Below, piece after piece: positions 29,744 through 29,993 of a stretch of DNA of 64,000 bases. Position numbers and translations under genes: made by a program. Source of the stretch: Thermoplasmata archaeon (lineage in GTDB: Archaea > Thermoplasmatota > Thermoplasmata > Thermoplasmatales > GCA-001856825). Position 1 is the stretch's first letter. Each line of letters begins with the position of its first letter. The notes beneath the pieces were generated by a model. The model ran no database searches. It worked only from the letters and a program-made list of their open reading frames with translations, and was not told the origin of the DNA. The stretch is taken from NCBI GenBank assembly GCA_021816725.1, contig JAKAXD010000004.1, forward strand, positions 1-64,000. The letters run 5' to 3'.

Positions 29744-29851
29744 ATGAGAAGGAGTTCTAGGGATTGGAAGAAAAGACACAATATGCGATGGAAGTGGCGG
29801 AAGAAAAGAATGCGGAGACTAAAGAGGATCAGACGGGCATCTAGGAGTTAA
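29744..29851 (+). CDS. rpl41e: large-subunit ribosomal protein eL41
   Basis: This is a very short arginine/lysine/tryptophan-rich frame. From the inner ATG at 29783 it reads MRWKWRKKRMRRLKR and ends after 22 residues, nearly identical in pattern to eL41, the smallest ribosomal protein (about 25 residues in eukaryotes), a single helix at the subunit interface. The outer ATG at 29744 has an AAGGTG ribosome binding site 5 nt upstream and would add 13 basic residues; the inner ATG has none. I give the outer start, but the mature protein may be the 22-mer. The gene ends 3 nt before tRNA-Trp. Confidence 0.85.
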   Translation: MRRSSRDWKKRHNMRWKWRKKRMRRLKRIRRASRS

Positions 29852-29854
29852 ACT

Positions 29855-29993
29855 GGGCGCATGGGGTAGTCAGGCATCCTAGCGGGCTCCAGTTAGGGTT
29901 TGATTAAATGTGGGTCATCTGATGTTGATGATAAACTGGAGCGATGACCCTAAGAGATACCCGCAGATCTGGGTTCAAATCCCAGTGCGCCCA
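29855..29993 (+). tRNA. tRNA-Trp (anticodon CCA) with intron
   Basis: The mature parts are 29855-29892 and 29959-29993. Acceptor GGGCGCA pairs with TGCGCCC, the D arm resembles other archaeal tRNA-Trp, anticodon stem GCGGG (29882-29886) pairs with CCCGC (29960-29964), the CCA anticodon is 29889-29891, and the T arm is CTGGG-TTCAAAT-CCCAG. The discriminator is A and CCA is not encoded. The 66-nt intron lies at the canonical 37/38 site; both junctions sit in 3-nt bulges flanking a short helix (CUC/GAG plus one C-A mismatch), with an inner helix UAGGG/CCCUA, a bulge-helix-bulge for the splicing endonuclease. Confidence 0.95.
29893..29958 (+). ncRNA. tRNA-Trp intron: box C/D methylation guide RNA
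   Basis: The intron carries box C UGAUUA (29901-29906), D' CUGA (29919-29922), C' UGAUGA (29926-29931) and D AUGA (29944-29947). The guide before D (29934-29942) pairs perfectly with 29886-29894, placing the fifth base upstream of D opposite C34. The guide before D' (29909-29915) pairs with 29959-29965 (one G-U), placing the fifth base opposite C39. This follows the D+5 rule for 2'-O-methylation by fibrillarin. Guide introns in tRNA-Trp are known in Euryarchaeota such as Haloferax, targeting positions 34 and 39. Confidence 0.88.

What the first reader, a model, noticed from the sequence alone, without database searches (positions are those of the whole stretch)
29855..29993. tRNA-Trp intron is a complete two-guide box C/D RNA for positions 34 and 39
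Seen: in the 66-nt intron, 29934-29942 pairs perfectly with 29886-29894, and the fifth base before box D (29939) faces C34 (29889). The 29909-29915 guide pairs with 29959-29965, and the fifth base before D' (29914) faces C39 (29960). Both follow the D+5 rule. Known: such a guide intron was shown in Haloferax with targets 34 and 39; there position 39 is U, here it is C. Box C (UGAUUA) and D (AUGA) are each one base off consensus, and the intron is unusually compact.
Basis: partly seen in the sequence, partly recalled or inferred. Interest (0 to 1): 0.7.

Follow-up and report, generated by a model that had tools for sequence, protein, structure and literature searches.

The report
Archaeal tRNA-Trp intron guiding two methylations
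The intron of this archaeon's tryptophan tRNA gene is itself a small guide RNA that most likely directs methylation of two positions of the same tRNA, a known archaeal arrangement whose signature boxes have drifted here in a mutually compensating way across the whole phylum.

Summary
Confirmed. The window carries tRNA-Trp(CCA) at 29855-29993 with a 66-nt intron (29893-29958) that is a complete two-guide box C/D RNA. Both spacers are exactly 12 nt. The D guide pairs 9/9 across the 5' splice site and puts G29939 opposite C34. The D' guide pairs 7/7 (one G-U) and puts G29914 opposite C39. Dinucleotide shuffles of the intron reach both in only 2 of 100,000 cases. The intron is conserved in 50 of 61 relatives and widely in Thermoplasmatota.

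This is the known sR50/tRNA-Trp-intron guide. Neither 66 nt (archaeal median 65) nor C39 (Cm39 is already listed) is unusual.

Box C UGAUUA with box D AUGA replaces the k-turn 4b:4n G-C pair by U-A. Among 141 distinct introns this pair is U-A 113, G-C 14, C-G 4, A-U 3 and not Watson-Crick 7. Stand-alone C/D RNAs found in the same genomes are canonical. The splice-site helix is mismatched at C34 in 113 of 141 introns, and at C35 in the window's family.

Methylation itself is inferred, not shown. Ordinary kind, with a modest new variation.

The parts
29744..29851 (+). rpl41e (35 aa ribosomal protein L41), stop codon 3 nt upstream of tRNA-Trp; neighbour, not part of the guide
   Evidence: Pfam PF05162 E=3.2e-5; upstream of tRNA-Trp in 150 fetched loci
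29855..29892 (+). tRNA-Trp 5' exon, nt 1-37; anticodon CCA 29889-29891; C34 = 29889
   Evidence: acceptor, anticodon and T stems pair; conserved in 50 of 61 relatives
29893..29958 (+). 66-nt intron = box C/D guide RNA
29893..29899 (+). stem I 5' strand (UUAGGGU), pairs with 29947-29953; shared with the outer helix of the splice-site bulge-helix-bulge
   Evidence: sequence; MFE of the intron alone
29901..29906 (+). box C, UGAUUA (U29905 = k-turn 4b)
   Evidence: covaries with box D nt 1
29909..29915 (+). D' guide, pairs with 29959-29965; G29914 faces C39 (29960)
29919..29922 (+). box D', CUGA
   Evidence: conserved in all BLAST-collected relatives
29926..29931 (+). box C', UGAUGA
   Evidence: conserved in all BLAST-collected relatives
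29934..29942 (+). D guide, pairs with 29886-29894 across the 5' splice site; G29939 faces C34 (29889)
29944..29947 (+). box D, AUGA (A29944 = k-turn 4n)
   Evidence: covaries with box C nt 5
29954..29958 (+). 3' end of the intron: GAG pairs with C32-U33-C34 in the bulge-helix-bulge; A29953 opposite C35 is a mismatch; bulge A29957-U29958|A29959
   Evidence: sequence; comparison
29959..29993 (+). tRNA-Trp 3' exon from A38; C39 = 29960

Best explanation
The intron of pre-tRNA-Trp is an archaeal dual-guide box C/D sRNA (the sR50 / tRNA-Trp intron type). L7Ae would bind the outer C/D k-turn and the inner C'/D' k-loop, and Nop5 and fibrillarin would join. The D guide would direct 2'-O-methylation of C34 and the D' guide of C39 before the splicing endonuclease cuts the bulge-helix-bulge and the exons are ligated. 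The D guide duplex includes the first two intron nucleotides, so its best substrate is unspliced pre-tRNA, in cis or from another intron in trans. The off-consensus outer boxes still form a k-turn because the two changes restore one Watson-Crick pair (U29905-A29944 for G-C). Shown here: sequence, pairing, conservation, covariation, presence of the protein genes. Inferred: RNP assembly, methylation, order of events.
For: Exact architecture with two 12-nt spacers and D+5 register for both sites. Chance 2 in 100,000 for both guides. Conservation in 50 of 61 relatives and a pattern match in 120 of 221 good phylum genomes (a few of its matches are chance). Guide-target covariation at the exon-intron boundaries: 141/141 paired against 116.6 in shuffles for guide D, 130/141 against 96.0 for guide D'. 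K-turn pair 4b:4n Watson-Crick in 134/141 with all four pair types, 0 of 20,000 shuffles reaching it, while registers slid by one or two nucleotides show little or no excess. Fibrillarin, Nop5 and L7Ae genes present. Published precedent: the tRNA-Trp intron guides Cm34 and Um39 or Cm39.
Against: No methylation data. The naked pre-tRNA is predicted to prefer another fold in which 29912-29919 pairs with 29943-29950, hiding guide D' and box D. In the window's genus the junction pair of the D' duplex is lost (C29916 faces U29958), leaving 7 pairs with one G-U. The splice-site central helix has a C35-A mismatch. Tree-based sign tests of the k-turn covariation have too few independent pairs to be significant (3-4 same way, 0 opposite). 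Splicing endonuclease was not found in this 79%-complete genome, though 8 of the 10 other genomes of the genus have it.
Confidence: 0.93

Rival explanations
1. Only the C34 guide is functional; the D' guide for C39 is weakening in this genus.
For: D' duplex is 7 pairs with one G-U, and the pair with the last intron nucleotide is broken in the window's genus (C/U or C/A) although kept in most of the phylum. A fold that hides guide D' is predicted.
Against: G facing C39 and the GGGU core are unchanged in the genus and its family, and 129/130 introns keep G opposite C39. A 12-nt spacer and canonical D'/C' are kept.
Confidence: 0.15
2. A plain spliced intron whose resemblance to a C/D RNA is an inherited relic without guide activity.
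For: The outer boxes are off consensus. In Haloferax the intron is dispensable (PMC4090602, PMC11408192). One related family (G015) has cut the intron to 15 nt and lost the guide.
Against: Compensatory change keeps the k-turn pair and both guide duplexes across the phylum, which a relic would not do; where the guide is lost the intron has shrunk to a minimum.
Confidence: 0.05
3. Chance complementarity in an AU-rich intron.
For: None found.
Against: 2 in 100,000 shuffles, plus phylum-wide conservation.
Confidence: 0.01

Closest known systems
tRNA-Trp intron box C/D guide (sR50) of Pyrococcus, Haloferax and other Euryarchaeota (Omer 2000; Clouet d'Orval 2001; Singh 2004)
   Same: Intron after nt 37 of tRNA-Trp(CCA), two guides for positions 34 and 39, C/D and C'/D' boxes; typical length (median 65 nt, PMC4090602).
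   Different: Outer boxes are UGAUUA/AUGA, i.e. k-turn 4b:4n = U-A, where archaeal C/D k-turns are described as strongly conserved G:C (PMC5689011). Position 39 is C as predicted for P. furiosus, not U as in Haloferax.
Stand-alone box C/D sRNAs of the same genomes (for example G000:C18:3183-3236 and C23:91052-91098)
   Same: Two guides, 12-nt D spacer, C'/D' UGAUGA/CUGA.
   Different: Outer boxes canonical UGAUGA/CUGA; not inside a tRNA gene.
Short tRNA-Trp intron of a related family (G015, 15 nt)
   Same: Same position and bulge-helix-bulge.
   Different: No guide RNA left.

Membership tests
tRNA-Trp intron box C/D guide (sR50 type) | Intron in tRNA-Trp(CCA) directly after nt 37 | tested here: met
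   29893-29958 between G37 and A38
tRNA-Trp intron box C/D guide (sR50 type) | Boxes C, D', C', D in order, spacers about 12 nt | tested here: met
   Both spacers 12 nt; C and D each one base off consensus but mutually compensating
tRNA-Trp intron box C/D guide (sR50 type) | Guide with 5th base before D opposite C34 | tested here: met
   9 pairs, G29939-C29889
tRNA-Trp intron box C/D guide (sR50 type) | Guide with 5th base before D' opposite position 39 | tested here: met
   7 pairs including one G-U, G29914-C29960
tRNA-Trp intron box C/D guide (sR50 type) | Guide duplexes span the exon-intron junctions | tested here: inconclusive
   Met for guide D (intron nt 1-2). For guide D' met in most of the phylum but not in the window's genus (C29916 opposite U29958)
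tRNA-Trp intron box C/D guide (sR50 type) | L7Ae, Nop5 and fibrillarin encoded | tested here: met
tRNA-Trp intron box C/D guide (sR50 type) | 2'-O-methyl at 34 and 39 dependent on the intron | not testable with these tools
   needs RNA
Archaeal box C/D k-turn | Tandem G.A / A.G pairs next to a 3-nt bulge and stem I | tested here: met
   GA and AG at 1b:1n and 2b:2n in 130/130 and 129/130 introns
Archaeal box C/D k-turn | 4b:4n strongly conserved as G:C (PMC5689011) | tested here: not met
   U-A in the window and 113/141 introns; G-C in 14
Canonical archaeal bulge-helix-bulge | 3-nt bulges around a fully paired 4-bp central helix | tested here: not met
   C35-A mismatch in the window; C34 mismatch in 113/141, full pairing in 18/141

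The most novel reading that the evidence does not exclude
In Thermoplasmatota the tRNA-Trp intron has its own k-turn code: the outer C/D 'boxes' evolve as interchangeable Watson-Crick pairs (U-A, G-C, C-G, A-U) while stand-alone guides found in the same cells stay UGAUGA/CUGA. A conserved mismatch in the splice-site helix, placed at the methylation target C34 (or C35 in this family), keeps splicing weak enough for the guide duplex to form first, so that methylation precedes splicing.
Probability: 0.2. Interest if true: 0.55.

Novelty: new member of a known kind. Interest (0 to 1): 0.33.

Why it matters
It extends a textbook case, an intron that guides modification of its own tRNA, across a large and mostly uncultured archaeal phylum. 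It also shows that box C and box D can be recognised by base-pair covariation instead of fixed letters, which matters for finding guide RNAs by sequence. The recurrent mismatch at C34 in the splicing motif gives a testable link between guide pairing and splicing.

Tried and rejected
A stand-alone C/D RNA with a tRNA-Met anticodon guide (G000:C18:3183-3236) was first suspected to be another tRNA intron; its flanks hold no tRNA. A stand-alone replacement for the Trp C34 guide in genomes without the intron guide was searched for and not found with one strict pattern. A link between canonical G-C k-turn and perfect splice helix (12 of 14 G-C introns against 6 of 127 others) rests on about three lineages and is not significant on the tree, so it is not claimed. 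The 8-bp alternative hairpin (29912-29919 with 29943-29950) was considered as a regulatory switch but is broken across family f6. Key primary papers (Clouet d'Orval 2001, Bortolin 2003, Joardar 2008, Hirata 2019) were not held; reviews were used instead. One search stopped with an error after printing its tables; the splice-helix part was redone.

Full report
What is there. The window holds tRNA-Trp(CCA) at 29855-29993 on the + strand, with a 66-nt intron 29893-29958 after nt 37. Neither ARAGORN nor Rfam reports it, presumably because of the long intron. The intron has box C UGAUUA (29901-29906), D' CUGA (29919-29922), C' UGAUGA (29926-29931) and D AUGA (29944-29947), with two spacers of exactly 12 nt. 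The D guide (29934-29942) pairs 9/9 with 29886-29894 and its fifth base before D faces C34. The D' guide (29909-29915) pairs 7/7, one of them G-U, with 29959-29965 and its fifth base before D' faces C39. In 100,000 dinucleotide shuffles of the intron both guides arise in order in 2.

Where it comes from. The genome is a 1.31-Mb, 79%-complete archaeal assembly. Fibrillarin, Nop5 and L7Ae are encoded. The splicing endonuclease was not found in this incomplete genome but is present in 8 of the 10 other genomes of the genus.

Conservation. The whole gene with its intron is found by similarity in 50 of 61 genomes, the window's own included (alignment). A strict pattern finds such introns in 153 of 392 phylum genomes, 120 of 221 good ones, with the reversed pattern giving none; a few of the listed matches are clearly chance, and pattern absence is not proof of absence. 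In 130 distinct introns G faces C34 in 130 and C39 in 129. The pattern used fixed the core of guide D and boxes D' and C', so those letters are not independent evidence in that set. The positions left free by it are evidence: the second intron nucleotide and its guide D partner are A-U 90, G-C 34, G-U 6; the last intron nucleotide and its guide D' partner pair in 119, mainly C-G 61 and U-A 55. Shuffling partners among sequences never reaches the observed pairing, though that control ignores relatedness. One related family (G015) has reduced the intron to 15 nt and lost the guide.

The off-consensus boxes. In k-turn terms, box C nt 5 of UGAUGA (4b) pairs with box D nt 1 of CUGA (4n). The window has U and A there in place of G and C, which is a compensating swap. 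Across 141 distinct introns the pair is U-A 113, G-C 14, C-G 4, A-U 3, other 7. Watson-Crick pairing is 134/141 against 97.7 expected from shuffles; registers slid by one or two nucleotides show little or no excess. On a tree built without these columns 4b changes at least 10 times, 4n 11 times and the joint state 13 times, so about eight changes coincide; the formal independent-pair test has too few pairs to be significant. The next pair, 3b:3n, also shows rare Watson-Crick swaps. Archaeal box C/D k-turns have been described as strongly conserved G:C at 4b:4n and U:U at 3b:3n (PMC5689011). In the 61 genomes, a canonical pattern finds stand-alone guides as well as the Trp introns of one family, while a U-A pattern finds tRNA-Trp introns in all but one of its matches. 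So in these genomes the variant was found only at this locus; stand-alone guides with other box variants were not exhaustively searched.

The splice site. The central helix of the bulge-helix-bulge should pair nt 32-35 with the intron's 3' end. In 113 of 141 introns nt 34, the methylation target, is mismatched; 18 are fully paired; the six introns of the window's family pair C34 but mismatch C35. The guide D duplex and this helix use the same nucleotides, so they exclude each other in cis. That a weakened splice helix favours methylation before splicing is my inference.

Folding. The naked intron folds with stem I as its ends, but the naked pre-tRNA is predicted to form an 8-bp hairpin of 29912-29919 with 29943-29950 that would hide guide D' and box D. 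Protein binding is expected to override it; this is untested.

Known or new. Reviews describe exactly this system: the tRNA-Trp intron guides Cm34 and Um39 or Cm39, in cis or in trans (PMC4090602; PMC7994747; PMC11408192; PMC6313347). C39 was predicted as a target in P. furiosus (PMC7668247). The median archaeal tRNA-Trp intron is 65 nt, so this one is not unusually compact. The finding is therefore a new member of a known kind; the covarying outer k-turn and the mismatch at the target are the new details. I found no report of either in the held papers, which is a limited search.

Noticed in passing
29744-29851 (+): rpl41e, a 35-aa ribosomal protein L41 gene with a conserved N-terminal extension, ends 3 nt before tRNA-Trp; the same gene pair stands in 150 fetched Thermoplasmatota loci, suggesting a shared transcript.
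   Followed up: partly
L221 201-291 (G015:C4): tRNA-Trp of a related family with a 15-nt intron, TTCCCCCGAGGAGGC: the guide RNA has been lost while the bulge-helix-bulge is kept.
   Followed up: partly
L202 (G000:C18:3183-3236, minus strand): Stand-alone canonical C/D RNA whose D guide pairs 10 nt with ACUCAUAGGG of an intron-containing tRNA-Met (L242 1501-1600, called tRNA-Ser by ARAGORN), facing C34 and running into the intron; it lies directly before a protein gene in the same orientation. Its D' target was not identified.
   Followed up: partly
L022, L108, L138: Outer k-turn UGUUUA/AAGA: the A.G sheared position itself is altered (U in place of A) together with box D U to A, in three records with the same intron.
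   Followed up: no
Introns of 91-111 nt, e.g. L052, L061, L065: Methanomassiliicoccales-type tRNA-Trp introns carry an extra conserved hairpin with GGGTCGCTCCC or GGGTAGCTCCC between the D box stem and the 3' splice site; function unknown.
   Followed up: no
G043:C10:116361-116492 and 118189-118321 (L051, L041): Two tRNA-Trp genes about 1.8 kb apart in one genome; the second has altered acceptor and T-arm sequence and may be a decaying copy.
   Followed up: no
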